A DNA stretch of 6,356 nt from Chloroflexota bacterium (lineage in GTDB: Bacteria > Chloroflexota > Dehalococcoidia > SHYB01). Below the pieces are notes generated by a model. The model did no database searches. It was not told where the DNA came from and worked only from the letters and a program-made list of their open reading frames with translations. Below are positions 1-5,951 of this stretch, one piece after another (position 1 is the stretch's first letter; each line of letters begins with the position of its first letter). A program made the translations under genes and the position numbers. The DNA lies in the NCBI GenBank assembly GCA_016200725.1, contig JACQEE010000143.1, positions 1 through 6,356 of the forward strand, given 5' to 3'.

Positions 1-180
1 AAGTGGGGAAGCGAGGGCTCGGGCGACGGTCAGTTCAACATGCCCTCGGGTATAGCGGTGGATGCGCAGGGGAACGTCTACGTTGCCGACCGTGGCAACT
101 ACCGTATCCAGGAGTTCACGAGCACCGGCAAATTCCTCACTAAGTGGGGAAGCGAGGGCTCGGGCGACGGTCAGTTCAAC
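1..180 (+). repeat. 141-bp tandem coding repeat with an identical 39-bp core
   Basis: Bases 1-39 and 142-180 are identical over 39 bp and encode KWGSEGSGDGQFN both times. The offset is 141 bp, or 47 codons, which is one NHL blade. Sequence after each core has diverged at many third positions, so the perfect identity of the core points to recent duplication or gene conversion. The array probably continues upstream of the window. Confidence 0.85.
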
Positions 181-273
181 AGCCCCTTTGGGGTAGCGGT
201 GGATGGCGTGGGAAATGTCTACGTCGCCGATTTCGACACTCCCGGCATCCAGAAGTTCGGGGTGAAGCCGTGA
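1..273 (+). CDS. NHL-repeat beta-propeller protein, C-terminal end (partial)
   Basis: The frame is open from the first base, so the gene starts upstream of the window; 90 residues are visible. They consist of NHL-type blades: KWGSEGSGDGQFN, then P-x-G-(I/V)-A-V-D, GNVYVAD and RIQEF. The blade unit is 47 residues and appears about twice. NHL repeats form beta-propellers that usually bind proteins, sugars or RNA and are often exported in bacteria; no catalytic residues can be read here. The last blade is degenerate: the usual N-x-R-I-Q after VYVAD has become a D-T-P-G-I-Q version, and the protein stops after KFGVKP, as expected at the end of a propeller. No clear terminator follows; a short inverted repeat (312-324) is the only structure nearby. 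The family call is secure, but the function is unknown. Confidence 0.9.
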   Translation, partial: KWGSEGSGDGQFNMPSGIAVDAQGNVYVADRGNYRIQEFTSTGKFLTKWGSEGSGDGQFNSPFGVAVDGVGNVYVADFDTPGIQKFGVKP

Positions 274-322: not shown

Positions 323-426
323 GGAGCGGAAGGACATCGCGCACCCGTTTTGCGAGCGACTCGGCTACGGCTCTCCCTCGCGGGCATTCAGGAAGTATTT
401 CAAGGGCGAAGGGTGAGAGGGCAAAC
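323..426 (+). repeat. Dispersed protein-like element, copy A (PFCERL motif)
   Basis: This stretch aligns with 2963-3064. In one frame it reads ERKDIAHPFCERLGYGSP, then a segment containing AFRKYFKGEG, then a TGA at 414-416. Copy B reads ERKMPARPFCERLEYESP. In the shared codons for E, R, K, P, F, C, E, R, L, Y, S and P, six codons differ only at the third base (CGG/CGA, GAG/GAA, CGA/CGG, CTC/CTA, TCT/TCG, CCC/CCA), a pattern of coding constraint. An ATG at 273 overlaps the NHL stop codon and would give a 47-residue ORF ending at 416, but it lacks a convincing ribosome binding site. At the TGA, copy B has CGA, so copy A may be truncated. I do not recognise the family. LGYGSPSRAFRKYF vaguely resembles the end of an AraC-type helix-turn-helix, but three residues of that pattern are missing. 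Confidence 0.5.
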
Positions 427-568: not shown

Positions 569-608
569 TTGTAACCCGCTTGTAACCGCCTAGAAACAAC
601 CAGTTAAC
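569..608 (+). promoter_or_regulatory. GlnR/OmpR-type operator array upstream of the winged-helix gene
   Basis: Four half-sites lie at an exact 11-bp period: GTAAC (571), GTAAC (582), GAAAC (593) and TTAAC (604), each separated by 6 bases. Read as 7-mers, the unit is TTGTAAC-N4-TTGTAAC-N4-TAGAAAC-N4-AGTTAAC. The 5-bp-plus-N6 layout matches what is known for GlnR boxes (GTnAC-N6-GAAAC repeated), and 11-bp direct repeats are typical of OmpR/PhoB-family dimers in general. The array ends 26 bp before a possible -10 (TATAGT, 634-639), a position suited to activation. That the downstream regulator binds here is inference. Confidence 0.7.
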
Positions 609-633
609 ATATGCCCTCTACTGTGTTGTGGCG

Positions 634-639
634 TATAGT
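634..639 (+). promoter_or_regulatory. Possible -10 box for the winged-helix gene
   Basis: TATAGT lies 26 bp downstream of the operator array and 67 bp before the GTG start. No good -35 hexamer sits 16-18 bp upstream, where ATGCCC is found, which would fit an activator-dependent promoter whose -35 is replaced by the upstream array. This is a single hexamer match and could be chance. Confidence 0.3.
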
Positions 640-705
640 CGGCCCCGTTCGGTCCACTTCATGCCTTGGCTGACGGGCGCTGGCGATTAAGACCGAGGTG
701 CGTGC

Positions 706-1083
706 GTGCCCACCGAGCATTTGATCCGACTGGGAAACCTCGCTGTCGACAAGAGCACGTATGGGGTCCGGATCTCCGATAAACCGGTAGTACTCTCGTA
801 CCTCCAATTTGAGTTGCTCCTGTACCTAGCATCCCATCCCAATCAAATCATTTCCGCCCAGACGTTGCTTGAGAACGTCTGGGGCCTCCGCCCGGGAAAG
901 GGATCGAACACGCGACTGCGAATCCAGGTTTACCGGTTGCGCCGGTTCATTCAAGCGAGTTCACCCTGGAAGATCACCACTGTCTCGAAGCGCGGCTACG
1001 GGTTGATACAGGCCGCTGGCGAAGCCGCTCGGAAGCCGTCCCCATCGCGTAATGTGATGGTTACTCGACAGAAACAGCCTTGA
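706..1083 (+). CDS. Stand-alone OmpR/PhoB-type winged-helix transcription regulator
   Basis: This 125-residue protein consists almost entirely of one Trans_reg_C (OmpR/PhoB) DNA-binding domain, at about residues 5-103. FELLLYLASHPNQIIS matches the alpha-1/alpha-2 region, LLENVWG the alpha-2/loop, TRLRIQVYRLRRFI (69-82) the recognition helix, and ITTVSKRGYGL (90-100) the C-terminal wing. The N-terminal receiver domain with the phospho-accepting Asp is absent, and a stop codon (688-690) upstream in frame rules out a longer protein. The tail after residue 105 is basic and probably disordered. The start is GTG at 706, with GAGG at 695-698; TTG at 721 is an alternative. It lies upstream of, and in the same direction as, a small membrane protein gene and an ammonium transporter gene, with GlnR-like arrays before it and across its end. 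A role as nitrogen regulator is inferred from this context. Its base composition is visibly more AT-rich than that of the genes to the right. Confidence 0.88.
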   Translation: MPTEHLIRLGNLAVDKSTYGVRISDKPVVLSYLQFELLLYLASHPNQIISAQTLLENVWGLRPGKGSNTRLRIQVYRLRRFIQASSPWKITTVSKRGYGLIQAAGEAARKPSPSRNVMVTRQKQP

Positions 1084-1097
1084 AATACGCCTGTAAC
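1060..1097 (+). promoter_or_regulatory. GlnR/OmpR-type operator array upstream of the amt transcription unit
   Basis: Four half-sites lie at an exact 11-bp period: GTTAC (1060), GAAAC (1071), GAAAT (1082) and GTAAC (1093), each separated by 6 bases. The first two lie inside the last codons of the winged-helix gene, the third overlaps its TGA, and the fourth lies beyond it. The layout and half-sites match the array at 571-608 and the known GlnR-box pattern. The array sits 53 bp before the small membrane protein gene and about 240 bp before the transporter. The -10 is unclear; TAATTT at 1127-1132 is a weak candidate. Binding by the adjacent regulator is inferred. Confidence 0.72.
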
Positions 1098-1149
1098 ATT
1101 CGCGCGAGAAGATGCGCCGCAGCAAGTAATTTCCGCCAGGAGGGCACCC

Positions 1150-1266
1150 ATGCAGATAGCCGCCGCGATTGCAGTGTTCGGTGTGATGGTCATCGCTTTC
1201 GCCATCGTCCCCACGTTCGTTAAGAAGCGCCATGTAGCCCGCATGAAAGACAGCGCCCCCCAATAG
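1150..1266 (+). CDS. Small single-pass membrane protein (38 aa) upstream of amt
   Basis: ATG at 1150 is preceded by a near-perfect ribosome binding site, AGGAGGG (1138-1144), five bases away, and the frame ends at TAG 1264-1266. The protein has one hydrophobic segment (about residues 3-24, MQIAAAIAVFGVMVIAFAIV onward) followed by a basic stretch, KKRHVARMK. By the positive-inside rule this puts the C-terminus in the cytoplasm. It lies between the regulator and the transporter, 72 bases before the transporter start, and is probably co-transcribed with it. I do not recognise a family. A small accessory or stabilising subunit of the transporter, or a membrane sensor passing a signal to the receiver-less regulator, are both possible but unproven. 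The strong ribosome binding site and clean transmembrane-plus-basic-tail layout make a real gene likely. Confidence 0.7.
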   Translation: MQIAAAIAVFGVMVIAFAIVPTFVKKRHVARMKDSAPQ

Positions 1267-1338: not shown

Positions 1339-2817
1339 ATGAGCGCGAATCTCTTTGTGGCCAAATCTGAGAGCGCAATCGAATCGTTCGCCACGTGGAT
1401 CGGTAACTCCGTCAGCAAGCGGTGGATGGTCGCCGGCATCATGCTCGGCATGTTGGTCATAGCGTTCTTCGGGATCCCTGCCATCGTCCACGCAGGCGAC
1501 CCGAACGGCGCCGACACCCTCAAGGCCGACCCCGACGCCGCCGTGAATATGGCTTGGACGCTGGTGACGGGATTCCTGGTCTTCCTTATGCAGCTCGGAT
1601 TTGCATTTCTCGGGGCTGGCCTGTTGAGGGCCAGGAATACCGTCAACTACTTCACCAAGAGTTACATGGACTTCTGCATAGGCGGCCTGGCCTATTGGGC
1701 GTTTGGCTTCGGCATCATGTTCGGCGGTTCCGCTCTCTGGCCGGGCCTCGCCGATGGCAACAAGATGTTCGGGTATTCCGGGTTCTTTCTGTCAGGGGAT
1801 AGTTACGACGTCAAGACCATCATGGGCTGGTTCTTCCAGATGGTCTTCGCGGCCACTGCTGCCACCATCGTTGCGGGCGCTGTCGCCGAGCGCATGAAGA
1901 TTACGGCCTATCTGGCCTATAGCTTTATCGTCACCGGCATCATCTACTCCGTGTACGGTCACTGGGTCTGGGGGGGTGGCTGGCTTGCGACGTTGAAGGT
2001 CGGAGATATGACTGGCGCGAAAGACTTCGCCGGCTCGGGCGTCGTGCACACCGTCGGCGGATTGGCGGCTCTGGTAGGGGCCTGGATGGTTGGCCCCCGG
2101 CTCGGCAAGTTCAACAAGGATGGCAGCCCCAACGCTATCAAGGGCCACAACCTCCCATTCGTGGTCATCGGCACCTTTATCCTTTTCTTTGGGTGGTTCG
2201 GTTTCAATCCCGGGAGCACTCTGGCGGCCACCGACCTGCGGATTTCCGTGATCACGGTCAATACGTTTCTCGCGGGCGCCGCTGGCGCGGTTGTGGGGCT
2301 GTACTACACATTCATGAAGACCGGAAAGGCGGATATCATCACCGCTTGCAACGGCTCGCTCGCTGGGCTAGTCGCGGTCACGGCGCCATGTGCATACATC
2401 GCTCCCTGGGCTGCAGTAGTGATCGGCGGCCTTGCCCCGTTCGTGATGATCGGCACGGCCACGTTCGTGGAGAGGACTCTCAAGGTTGACGATGCCGTCG
2501 GCGCGGTTGGCGTGCACGCTGGCGGCGGGCTGTTCGGCCTGCTGTGTGTGGGGATCTTTGCCGATGGCAAGTACGGCGGCATTACCGGGCTGATTCATGG
2601 ACATACAGACCAGCTCGTGCTCCAACTGATCGATATGGGTGTCGTGGCTGGCTGGACGCTGGGCACGGCATTTCTCTGCTTCTGGCTCATCAAGCAAACG
2701 ATTGGCCTGCGCGCGAGCCGGGAAGAGGAGTTGTCAGGTCTGGACGTACCCGAGCATGGGATTGAGGCCTATCCCGCCGACAAGCCTATCCCTGCTCTGT
2801 CCGGCGCCGCACAATAG
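1339..2817 (+). CDS. amt: Ammonium transporter, AMT1-like
   Basis: This 492-residue inner-membrane channel carries ammonium as NH3 or NH4+ in a trimer. The family signature DFAGSGVVHTVGG lies at residues 229-241. The twin pore histidines are H237 (in VVHTVG) and H393 (in GVHAGGG), matching E. coli AmtB H168 and H318. D229 matches D160. FNPGS at 289-293 matches the F215 and S219 region. FLMQLGFAFLGAG and LLRARN resemble AMT1-type rather than E. coli AmtB-type proteins, as does AERMKITAYLAYS. The N-terminus is long: about 30 polar residues, then a hydrophobic segment (31-52) and a linker before the first conserved helix at about 70. This may be a cleaved leader or an extra helix. The C-terminal tail EEELSGLDVPEHGIEAY is the conserved regulatory tail. 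The ribosome binding site AGGAG (1327-1331) supports the start. No glnK follows; a terminator comes directly after. Confidence 0.96.
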   Translation: MSANLFVAKSESAIESFATWIGNSVSKRWMVAGIMLGMLVIAFFGIPAIVHAGDPNGADTLKADPDAAVNMAWTLVTGFLVFLMQLGFAFLGAGLLRARNTVNYFTKSYMDFCIGGLAYWAFGFGIMFGGSALWPGLADGNKMFGYSGFFLSGDSYDVKTIMGWFFQMVFAATAATIVAGAVAERMKITAYLAYSFIVTGIIYSVYGHWVWGGGWLATLKVGDMTGAKDFAGSGVVHTVGGLAALVGAWMVGPRLGKFNKDGSPNAIKGHNLPFVVIGTFILFFGWFGFNPGSTLAATDLRISVITVNTFLAGAAGAVVGLYYTFMKTGKADIITACNGSLAGLVAVTAPCAYIAPWAAVVIGGLAPFVMIGTATFVERTLKVDDAVGAVGVHAGGGLFGLLCVGIFADGKYGGITGLIHGHTDQLVLQLIDMGVVAGWTLGTAFLCFWLIKQTIGLRASREEELSGLDVPEHGIEAYPADKPIPALSGAAQ

Positions 2818-2837
2818 CCGCTGAACGGGCTGACTCA

Positions 2838-2877
2838 CAAAAGGCCCCGCAGCAACCGCTGCGGGGCCTTTTGTTTT
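2838..2877 (+). terminator. Rho-independent terminator after amt
   Basis: A perfect 16-bp stem pairs 2838-2853 with 2858-2873 around the 4-base loop AACC. The core GGCCCCGCAGC is GC-rich, and the stem is followed by TTTTGTTTT (2869-2877). It begins 20 bases after the transporter stop codon and ends the nitrogen transcription unit. The A-run on the 5' side means it could also act on the minus strand. Confidence 0.95.
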
Positions 2878-2962: not shown

Positions 2963-3064
2963 GGAGCGAAAGATGCCCGCGCGCCCGTTTTGCGAACGGC
3001 TAGAATACGAGTCGCCAGCCCAGGTTCCGGAAGCGCTTCACGGGTGATGGGCGAGACGAGAAGG
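2963..3064 (+). repeat. Dispersed protein-like element, copy B (PFCERL motif)
   Basis: This is the second copy of the element at 323-426. Both share GAGCG-A-AAG, then CCGTTTTGCGA, and similarity continues to about 3064. Relative to copy A it lacks two bases near 3022: restoring them would place FRKRFTGDGRDEKG after the SP motif, against FRKYFKGEG in copy A. Conservation on both sides of the frame break suggests a once-longer protein, now frameshifted here and carrying an early TGA in copy A. No terminal inverted repeats or target duplications are visible. Confidence 0.5.
2973..3047 (+). CDS. Possible 24-codon small ORF within element copy B
   Basis: ATG at 2973 follows AAGGAG (2961-2966) by six bases, an ideal ribosome binding site, and the frame ends at TGA 3045-3047. 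The product begins MPARPFCERLEYESP and ends in VPEALHG. Its first half is shared with copy A (323-426), including codons that differ only synonymously. The second half is read in a shifted frame relative to copy A, so its present C-terminus is probably not ancestral. It lies 55 bases upstream of the amidohydrolase gene and could be a leader peptide, a decayed gene fragment or a true small protein. A 5-bp inverted repeat (2945-2957) lies just before the ribosome binding site. Function is not recognised. Confidence 0.35.
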   Translation: MPARPFCERLEYESPAQVPEALHG

Positions 3065-4134: not shown

Positions 4135-5051
4135 CGGCCAATAGCCTTCAAGTAGCGAGCCAGCGCATCGAGGTGCTGGGCGGCGGTGGTGAAGCCGGCG
4201 TCGAGCGAGTTGATGCGCAGGTGGCTGACGCCGAGGGCTTGCCAGGCGCGCGTCCGCTCCGCCCACTCGACCGCTGACTCCTCGTTGAGGCCGATGCGCC
4301 CCTCGATGCCGAGCGTGCGCCTCCCTCCCTCTCCAGCTCTGCTGGAGAGGGACCTCCGGCGAAGCCGGAGAGGGTGAGGCGCGGCTTTGGCGTAGGCGCG
4401 CACATGATCGAGTACGGCCTTCGTCTTCGACTGTCGCGGGTCCATGCGCATGGGCAGCCAGCCATCGGCGAGGCGGCCGACGCGCCGCATGACGACCTCG
4501 GCGGCGCCGCCGATCCAGATCGGGATGGGGCGCTGGACGGGCATCGGGTTCAGGCCAGCCGCGTTGATCGTGTGCCAGCGGCCTTTGAATGTCACGGATG
4601 GCTGCGTCCACAGCGCGCGCAGCACTGCGATCTGCTCTTCGCACTTCTGGCCGCGTGTGTGAAAGTCCTCGCCAAGCGCCTCGAACTCGACGGCGTTCCA
4701 ACCGACGCCGATGCCCAGCGAGAGTCGGCCGCCAGAGAGCACGTCCACTTCCGCGGCCTGCTTCGCCACGAGCGCGGTCTGTCGCTGCGAGAGCACCAGC
4801 ACGCCGGTCATGAACTCGAGGCGCTTGGTGACGCTGGCGAGGTAGCCCATCAAGACGAACGGCTCGTGGAACATGTCCTTCGCGCTGTAATGGCCTGTCC
4901 ACCCTGGGCGGTTGGTGATGTCCGCGCCGAGGACGTGCTCGTAGATGGAGACGTACTCGAAGCCCATCGCCTCGATGCCGCGCGCGAAGTCGCGGATGGC
5001 CTCGGGGCGCGACCCGATCTCAGTCTGGGGAAAGGTCACGCCGATCTTCAT
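4131..5051 (-). CDS. LLM-class F420-dependent oxidoreductase
   Basis: This 306-residue protein has the luciferase-like monooxygenase TIM-barrel fold of the subgroup expected to use cofactor F420. Visible landmarks are MKIGVTFPQTEIG at the N-terminus, SIYEHVLG (about 35-42), VLVLSQRQTALVAKQAAEVD then LSGGRLSLGIGVGWN (about 84-119), the EEQIAVLRALW helix (138-148), and RPIPIWIGG with RVGRLADGW (174-198). ATG at 5051 is preceded on the minus strand by AGGAG five bases away. Residues about 225-245 (from PHPLRLRRRS to the RR before TLGIEGR) are not expected in this family. They are encoded by an intergenic-type repeat lying in frame (4327-4379). The insertion replaces a short surface loop before the conserved GIEGR strand. 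The gene is convergent with the amidohydrolase and divergent from the hydrolase. The substrate is unknown. Confidence 0.92.
   Translation of the reverse strand: MKIGVTFPQTEIGSRPEAIRDFARGIEAMGFEYVSIYEHVLGADITNRPGWTGHYSAKDMFHEPFVLMGYLASVTKRLEFMTGVLVLSQRQTALVAKQAAEVDVLSGGRLSLGIGVGWNAVEFEALGEDFHTRGQKCEEQIAVLRALWTQPSVTFKGRWHTINAAGLNPMPVQRPIPIWIGGAAEVVMRRVGRLADGWLPMRMDPRQSKTKAVLDHVRAYAKAAPHPLRLRRRSLSSRAGEGGRRTLGIEGRIGLNEESAVEWAERTRAWQALGVSHLRINSLDAGFTTAAQHLDALARYLKAIGR
4327..4379 (-). repeat. Two-hairpin palindromic repeat lying in frame in the LLM gene
   Basis: Read on the minus strand it is CCTCACCC, then hairpin CTCCGGC-TTC-GCCGGAG (4370-4354), then an 11-bp stem CCCTCTCCAGC-AGA-GCTGGAGAGGG (4351-4327). 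The same layout occurs at 5901-5951 on the plus strand, with compensated changes in the arms. It contributes about 16 extra residues to the protein without a stop codon. Confidence 0.85.
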
Positions 5052-5898: not shown

Positions 5899-5900
5899 GG

Positions 5901-5951
5901 CCTCACCCGTCCGCCTGCGGCGGACACCCTCTCCATCGGAGATGGAGAGGG
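5901..5951 (+). repeat. Two-hairpin palindromic repeat, intergenic copy
   Basis: CCTCACCC is followed by GTCCGCC-TGC-GGCGGAC (5909-5925) and an 11-bp stem CCCTCTCCATC-GGA-GATGGAGAGGG (5927-5951). It begins three bases after the MBL stop codon. It has the same architecture as the intragenic copy at 4327-4379, with three compensated base-pair differences in the stems. There is no T-run, so intrinsic termination is unlikely, but it may stabilise the 3' end of the mRNA. Confidence 0.85.

What the first reader, a model, noticed from the sequence alone, without database searches (positions are those of the whole stretch)
569..1097. Two matched four-site GlnR-like operators flank a receiver-less OmpR-type regulator next to an ammonium transporter
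The arrays at 571-608 (GTAAC, GTAAC, GAAAC, TTAAC) and 1060-1097 (GTTAC, GAAAC, GAAAT, GTAAC) each have four 5-bp half-sites at exactly 11-bp spacing. One lies before the regulator gene and the other before the small protein and amt genes. GlnR is known to bind GTnAC-N6-GAAAC repeats and to control amt genes in actinobacteria. Here the linked regulator has only the DNA-binding domain. The inference is an autoregulated nitrogen switch without a receiver domain.
Basis: partly seen in the sequence, partly recalled or inferred. Interest (0 to 1): 0.82.

Follow-up and report, generated by a model that had tools for sequence, protein, structure and literature searches.

The report
Receiver-less nitrogen regulator beside GlnR-type operators
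A little-studied group of bacteria appears to control its ammonium-uptake genes through the same kind of repeated DNA signal that actinobacteria use, and in this stretch the neighbouring regulator keeps only the DNA-binding half of the usual protein, which suggests a built-in brake or a stripped-down switch.

Summary
Arrays 571-608 (4 half-sites) and 1049-1097 (5, one more than reported) are the two best 11-bp arrays in the window. They recur: 9 of 13 receiver-less regulator genes, the window's included, have such an array upstream, unmatched in 500 shuffles each; of 84 large ORFs in related loci 8 score as high, all amt genes. Over 36 arrays a -10-like hexamer starts exactly 10 nt after the last half-site in 21; no other offset exceeds 7. 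Both window arrays fit. They look like GlnR/PhoB-type activator sites, in Dehalococcoidia by amt kinship. The 125-aa protein has no receiver. It falls in a clade of receiver-less proteins, 7 of 10 read in context beside amt. Four relatives of the locus have a full-length regulator in its slot. The clade keeps the arginine at the guanine-reading place but not the loop typical of GlnR-like proteins. My best reading (0.37) is a brake on full-length GlnR; autoregulation is unproven. A new small membrane-protein family follows many arrays.

The parts
571..608 (+). Array 1: four half-sites GTAAC/GTAAC/GAAAC/TTAAC at 11-bp period, before the regulator gene
   Evidence: 22.7; 0 of 500 shuffles; best other period 10.2
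619..624 (+). Predicted -10 hexamer TACTGT, exactly 10 nt after the last half-site of array 1
   Evidence: same phase in 21 of 36 arrays for nAnnnT, 11 of 36 for TAnnnT
706..1083 (+). 125-aa receiver-less OmpR/PhoB-type winged-helix protein (GTG start)
   Evidence: PF00486 5.3e-16; receiver-less clade 100/97; AF2 winged helix, residues 6-102; no receiver remnant
1049..1097 (+). Array 2: five half-sites GTAAT/GTTAC/GAAAC/GAAAT/GTAAC; its first 35 nt lie inside the regulator ORF
1108..1113 (+). Predicted -10 hexamer GAAGAT (weak), 10 nt after the last half-site of array 2
1150..1266 (+). 38-aa small protein with one hydrophobic stretch (membrane span judged from the letters), first ORF after array 2; AGGAGG at 1138-1143
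   Evidence: no Pfam family above cut-off
1339..2817 (+). amt, ammonium transporter, 492 aa
   Evidence: PF00909 3.3e-121; TIGR00836 over cut-off
2837..2874 (+). 17-bp perfect hairpin followed by TTTT: likely terminator of the amt transcript

Best explanation
Both arrays are nitrogen-regulon activator sites of GlnR type, each feeding a promoter whose -10 lies at a fixed phase: one for the regulator gene, one for small membrane protein + amt. The main reader is probably a full-length GlnR-like protein with an N-terminal receiver-like half, encoded elsewhere in the genome. The 125-aa protein is a DNA-binding-domain-only regulator of a conserved clade. It is made when the nitrogen regulon is on, settles on the same arrays, and, lacking the receivers that tetramerise and bridge to polymerase in GlnR and the loop typical of GlnR-like proteins, damps activation: a negative-feedback brake on ammonium uptake. 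Shown: arrays, phase, recurrence, linkage, missing receiver, changed loop. Inferred: who binds, and the sign of the effect.
For: Arrays far above shuffles. Arrays of 16 or more upstream of 9 of 13 receiver-less regulator genes (window included; 0 of 500 shuffles each); of 84 ORFs of 250 aa or more in 20 related loci 8 reach 16, all amt. nAnnnT at +10 nt in 21 of 36 arrays, next best offset 7; TAnnnT 11 at +10 and 5 at +21, at most 3 elsewhere. 7 of the 9 receiver-less arrays have TAnnnT at +10 or +21 (read off 45 and 54). Regulator beside amt in 7 of 10 contexts read, window included; one more before a nitrite/sulphite reductase. 5 of 6 such genomes in one order also carry a full-length relative. 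Arg at the PhoB R201 place in 13 of 13 receiver-less and 51 of 51 GlnR-clade rows; the loop Y-D/E-[FY]-[FYL]-G-G (columns 62-67) nearly invariant in the GlnR clade, with no position shared by more than 6 of 13 receiver-less rows. GlnR receivers form a tetramer that bridges to polymerase (passages of PMC10704036); loop mutants W184R, G185R, V190M and D192G abolish activation in PhoB (passages of PMC3973317). Nearest solved structures by sequence are GlnR DNA-binding domains (7, 46; named in 70).
Against: No binding data. PhoB numbering was laid on the columns from recall. The places of W184 and G185 are kept in the window (W59, G60), W in 12 and G in 8 of 13 receiver-less rows, so part of the contact loop is intact. 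A full-length relative found later, L248, has a changed loop too. The PhoB T194 place is Thr in 51 of 51 GlnR-clade rows but in only 2 of 13 receiver-less rows, so specificity may differ. 4 of 13 receiver-less genes lack an array upstream (L141, L142, L149, L134; 54); L142 and L149 have no amt in the DNA read. The clade is rare in these samples: 9 of 393 class genomes, 1 of 400 phylum genomes; both searches scored at most 11 candidates a genome, so these are lower bounds. Whether the window's genome has a full-length GlnR is unknown. The -10 of array 2 is weak.
Confidence: 0.37

Rival explanations
1. Stripped-down activator: without a receiver the domain binds the arrays constitutively and activates its own gene and amt, so activity is set by protein level alone.
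For: In the window the gene sits in the slot that holds a full-length relative in four loci (L241 220 aa, L246 283 aa, L248 271 aa, L249 257 aa), so it may do that protein's job; the Amts of L241, L246 and L249 are 73, 69 and 68% identical to the window's. Arrays lie at activator position before both genes. W and G at the PhoB 184/185 places are kept. That the isolated PhoB domain works without its receiver is recalled, not read here.
Against: The rest of the loop typical of GlnR-like proteins is not kept in the clade. Five of six clade genomes in one order keep a full-length copy as well.
Confidence: 0.3
2. The arrays are read only by a full-length GlnR-like protein; the receiver-less protein is merely a regulon member with other targets, or a decaying duplicate.
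For: Arrays before amt occur in genomes with no receiver-less member found; recognition-helix places differ from GlnR (51); long branch of the window protein.
Against: The Arg at the guanine-reading place is kept in 13 of 13; the gene recurs beside amt or a nitrite/sulphite reductase in 8 of 10 contexts; a confident fold is predicted for residues 6-102.
Confidence: 0.24
3. On origin rather than function (it can hold together with any of the above): the window protein is a GlnR-like protein that lost its receiver in place, and only long-branch attraction puts it with the other receiver-less proteins.
For: Same slot as the full-length gene in L241, L246, L248 and L249; highest raw identity 38%, to a full-length protein.
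Against: Holding window + GlnR-like as one clade costs 20.4 log-likelihood units, AU p 0.0435, borderline (74); receiver-less clade with the window 100/97 (50).
Confidence: 0.2
4. Chance repeats.
For: The score was built after the motif was named.
Against: 0 of 500 shuffles; recurrence at the same place in other genomes; fixed -10 phase (12, 45, 54).
Confidence: 0.01

Closest known systems
Actinobacterial GlnR and its box (gTnAc-n6-GaAAc, a-b-a-b at 11 bp)
   Same: Half-site sequence, 11-bp period, four sites, target amt; the nearest solved DNA-binding domains by sequence are GlnR (8hih, 8hml, 8hig, named in 70)
   Different: Window protein has no receiver; most of the loop before the recognition helix and the PhoB-T194 place differ; the host looks like Dehalococcoidia
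Full-length GlnR-like proteins of Dehalococcoidia (L021, L130/L241, L002 and others)
   Same: Same kind of array, same slot before amt in L021 and L130; DNA-binding domain in one clade with actinobacterial GlnR (98/98)
   Different: About 220-283 aa with an N-terminal receiver-like half; the window protein is 125 aa
PhoB and pho box promoters
   Different: Other half-site sequence; PhoB has a phosphorylated receiver
Archaeal small membrane proteins linked to AmtB (recalled; PMC11456600 seen in a search listing only)
   Same: Small membrane protein linked to ammonium transport
   Different: No sequence comparison made; the family here is bacterial and lies under GlnR-type arrays

Membership tests
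GlnR (OmpR/PhoB-type, actinobacterial) | OmpR/PhoB-type winged-helix DNA-binding domain | tested here: met
GlnR (OmpR/PhoB-type, actinobacterial) | N-terminal receiver domain | tested here: not met
   125 aa only; a receiver profile of 44 relatives finds nothing in six frames of the window (best E 0.2); it finds L246, L248 and L249, which are not in the profile, at 3e-14 or better, and the receiver-less set at no better than 0.72
GlnR (OmpR/PhoB-type, actinobacterial) | DNA-binding domain falls in the GlnR clade | tested here: inconclusive
   In the receiver-less clade (100/97); joined alone to the GlnR-like clade AU p 0.0435; receiver-less + GlnR-like as one clade not rejected, p 0.57; few columns, long branches
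GlnR (OmpR/PhoB-type, actinobacterial) | Loop typical of GlnR-like proteins before the recognition helix (WGYD[FY][FY]GG) | tested here: not met
   the window keeps W and G, then differs at every loop column but one G. A feature seen here in the clade, not a published definition
GlnR-type operator | 5-bp half-sites near G[TA]nA[CT] at 11-bp period before nitrogen genes | tested here: met
   consensus from PMC10704036 passages
GlnR-type operator | Position relative to the promoter as for an activator overlapping the -35 | tested here: met
   -10-like hexamer at a fixed +10/+21 phase; no transcription start was measured
GlnR-type operator | Bound by the regulator | not testable with these tools
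   needs gel shift or DAP-seq

The most novel reading that the evidence does not exclude
Dehalococcoidia run a GlnR-type nitrogen regulon, and several lineages carry a dedicated receiver-less GlnR-box protein inside ammonium or nitrite operons, as a natural dominant-negative or, as the window's slot suggests, as a minimal signal-free replacement for GlnR, together with a previously unnamed single-span small membrane protein made first from many of the same promoters and acting on Amt or glutamine synthetase.
Probability: 0.35. Interest if true: 0.75.

Novelty: new variant of a known kind. Interest (0 to 1): 0.6.

Why it matters
My searches (titles and abstract starts, 10 of 10, 12 of 66 and 4 of 4 hits listed, open-licence papers only) showed no paper on GlnR control in Chloroflexota. 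The arrays with their fixed -10 phase give a sequence rule for reading nitrogen promoters in this mostly uncultured class. A natural receiver-less relative beside the same operators lets one test directly what the GlnR receiver contributes: DNA binding, polymerase bridging, or nitrogen sensing, the last of which the GlnR review leaves to unknown signals (passages). The small membrane protein is a concrete new candidate partner of Amt or glutamine synthetase.

Full report
Observation. The window holds two runs of 5-bp half-sites at an exact 11-bp period: 571-608 (GTAAC GTAAC GAAAC TTAAC) and 1060-1097 (GTTAC GAAAC GAAAT GTAAC). A half-site score puts them first and second among 4-site windows on both strands; 60 shuffled windows reached at most 16.5 against 22.7 and 23.0, and periods 8-10 and 12-14 reached at most 13.4. 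A fifth site, GTAAT at 1049, extends array 2 to 1049-1097, over the last 35 nt of the regulator ORF.

Genes. 706-1083 encodes 125 aa with a single domain, Trans_reg_C; 1150-1266 a 38-aa protein with one hydrophobic stretch; 1339-2817 an ammonium transporter; a 17-bp perfect hairpin with TTTT follows. The nearest amt genes are mostly in records titled Dehalococcoidia or Chloroflexi. No whole genome is held for the window, so its place in Dehalococcoidia rests on amt kinship.

Arrays elsewhere. Of 80 amt loci (the best 80 of 593), 76 have upstream DNA; 12 of 76 have a + strand 4-site array scoring 16 or more. Ten of these are among the 22 whose titles name Chloroflexi, Chloroflexota, Dehalococcoidia, SAR202, Anaerolineae/Anaerolineales/Anaerolinea or Caldilineales; 12 of those 22 do not reach 16. 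The other two are an Actinomycetota and a Phycisphaerae record. In one order of 25 genomes many loci read full-length GlnR-like gene, array, amt, glutamine synthetase genes. L190 and L191 there lack an array, and several amt pieces at contig ends could not be judged.

Phase. Over 36 arrays of four or more good sites in the loci fetched by then plus the window, a hexamer nAnnnT starts 10 nt after the last half-site in 21; the next best of the 45 offsets has 7. TAnnnT: 11 at +10, 5 at +21, at most 3 elsewhere. Some loci are close relatives, so these are not 36 independent events, but a peak at one offset, and a second one repeat later, is what an activator overlapping the -35 would give. Both window arrays fit (TACTGT at 619; the weaker GAAGAT at 1108).

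Receiver-less clade. The 125-aa query found itself and one other protein in the protein database, but in 393 class genomes its three best hits were other short proteins with no receiver; 198 genomes had some match at 1e-10, most of the listed ones full-length. Nine contexts were read: L141, L143, L144, L145, L146 and L148 lie beside amt, with a P-II gene after it in L143 and L146 (PF00543) and, by its letters, L145; L147 lies before a nitrite/sulphite reductase; L142 and L149 have neither in the DNA read. Three further short ORFs (L134, L137, L139) were seen only in 3.3-kb loci. A profile of the ten finds 9 of 393 class genomes at 1e-30 and 1 of 400 phylum genomes; at most 11 candidates a genome were scored, so these are lower bounds. 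Within one order 6 of 25 genomes have it, and 5 of these 6 also have a separate full-length relative. Arrays score 16 or more within 300 bp upstream of 9 of 13 such genes, the window's among them, each unmatched in 500 shuffles; L141, L142, L149 and L134 do not. Of 84 ORFs of 250 aa or more in 20 related loci, 8 reach 16, and all 8 are amt. Seven of the nine have TAnnnT at +10 or +21 (read off; L137 and L139 do not).

Kinship. In a tree of 87 DNA-binding domains the receiver-less proteins form one clade (100/97), and GlnR-like proteins including the solved actinobacterial GlnR another (98/98) (few columns, long branches, the window row among the long ones). One clade of receiver-less plus GlnR-like is not rejected (p 0.57); the window protein inside the GlnR-like clade is borderline rejected (p 0.0435). 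Of 21 loci found by the small membrane protein alone, four (L241, L246, L248, L249) have a full-length relative of 220-283 aa just before the small protein and amt; a receiver profile matches all four, three of them not used to build it, at 3e-14 or better. The amt proteins of L241, L246 and L249 are 73, 69 and 68% identical to the window's. L259 has a regulator on the other side, and no regulator was found in the flank of the other loci, among them L247, whose amt is 73% identical. The window thus has a receiver-less protein in a slot where some relatives have a full-length one. Displacement and truncation in place are both open.

Mechanism. In PhoB, Arg201 reads guanine, Thr194 and Val197 touch thymines, and W184R, G185R, V190M and D192G in the loop before the recognition helix abolish activation (passages of PMC3973317; I laid this numbering on the columns from recall). 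The Arg is kept in 13 of 13 receiver-less and 51 of 51 GlnR-clade rows; the Thr in 51 of 51 but only 2 of 13. Of the loop, W is kept in 12 and the following G in 8 of 13, both in the window; the next six columns, nearly invariant in the GlnR clade (Y, D/E, aromatic, aromatic, G, G), share no residue in more than 6 of 13. The full-length L248 also departs there. In the GlnR activation complex four DNA-binding domains sit head to tail on four sites and four receivers form a tetramer bridging to polymerase (passages of PMC10704036). A protein that keeps the DNA-reading core but lacks the receivers is more likely to occupy arrays without full activation: a brake, made from an array promoter and so self-limiting. 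That is inference; a minimal activator, or a protein with other targets, is not excluded. The AF2 model (mean pLDDT 81.5) is a winged helix over residues 6-102 with a low-confidence tail, which may be why array 2 can overlap the coding sequence.

Small membrane protein. A profile from three members recovered 11 ORFs of 27-45 aa in the fetched loci. With the window, all 12 have an 11-bp array scoring 17.5 or more 65-134 bp upstream, and amt or glutamine synthetase as the next large ORF (Pfam for eight of these neighbours). These loci were amt-centred, so nearness to amt is partly by selection. A search by the small protein alone gave 21 places in 19 of 294 genomes. Amt or glutamine synthetase lies in the fetched flank on the same strand in 19 of 21: downstream in 16, upstream only in L243, L255 and L258; none in L242 and L250. 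An array of 16 or more lies upstream in 10 of 21 rows; L251 and L260 resolved to one ORF, so 9 of 20 distinct. In L243 a control period (17.6) beat the 11-bp score (15.8). No Pfam family above its cut-off in the six tested.

Literature. Searches for GlnR with Chloroflexi, GlnR with Dehalococcoid, and nitrogen-regulation terms listed no paper on GlnR control in this phylum (12 of 66 hits shown); the library holds open-licence papers only. PMC10704036, PMC3973317 and PMC3348028 were read in passages; other papers were seen as search listings.

Verdict. Real, recurring and GlnR-type; a new variant (receiver-less regulator within what looks like a Dehalococcoidia GlnR regulon). Autoregulation by the 125-aa protein is not shown.

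Noticed in passing
window 1150-1266; L001, L002, L003, L006, L011, L012, L022, L025, L027, L035, L130; loci L241-L261: Unnamed family of small proteins, about 30-50 aa with one hydrophobic stretch (roughly MxxEAxLxxVAFxGLFxxWVVLPSxxRK), often first after GlnR-type arrays and next to amt or glutamine synthetase.
   Followed up: partly
L134, L137, L139: Short receiver-less ORFs lying tail-to-tail with a full-length GlnR-like gene; L137 and L139 have arrays upstream of the short ORF.
   Followed up: partly
L147 4978-7613: Receiver-less regulator with an array upstream, followed by a nitrite/sulphite reductase instead of amt.
   Followed up: partly
window 338-418 and 2978-3056: Imperfect direct repeat, 72% over about 81 bp, one copy either side of the regulator-amt unit.
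   Followed up: no
window 4327-4380 and 5900-5951: Inverted repeat copies (80%), one of them inside a luciferase-like monooxygenase ORF; look like a short mobile repeat.
   Followed up: no
window 1-270: End of an NHL beta-propeller protein; two repeat units 85% alike at DNA level.
   Followed up: no
L002 7873-10583: Two further amt-like genes follow the first; a second array sits before the second amt.
   Followed up: no
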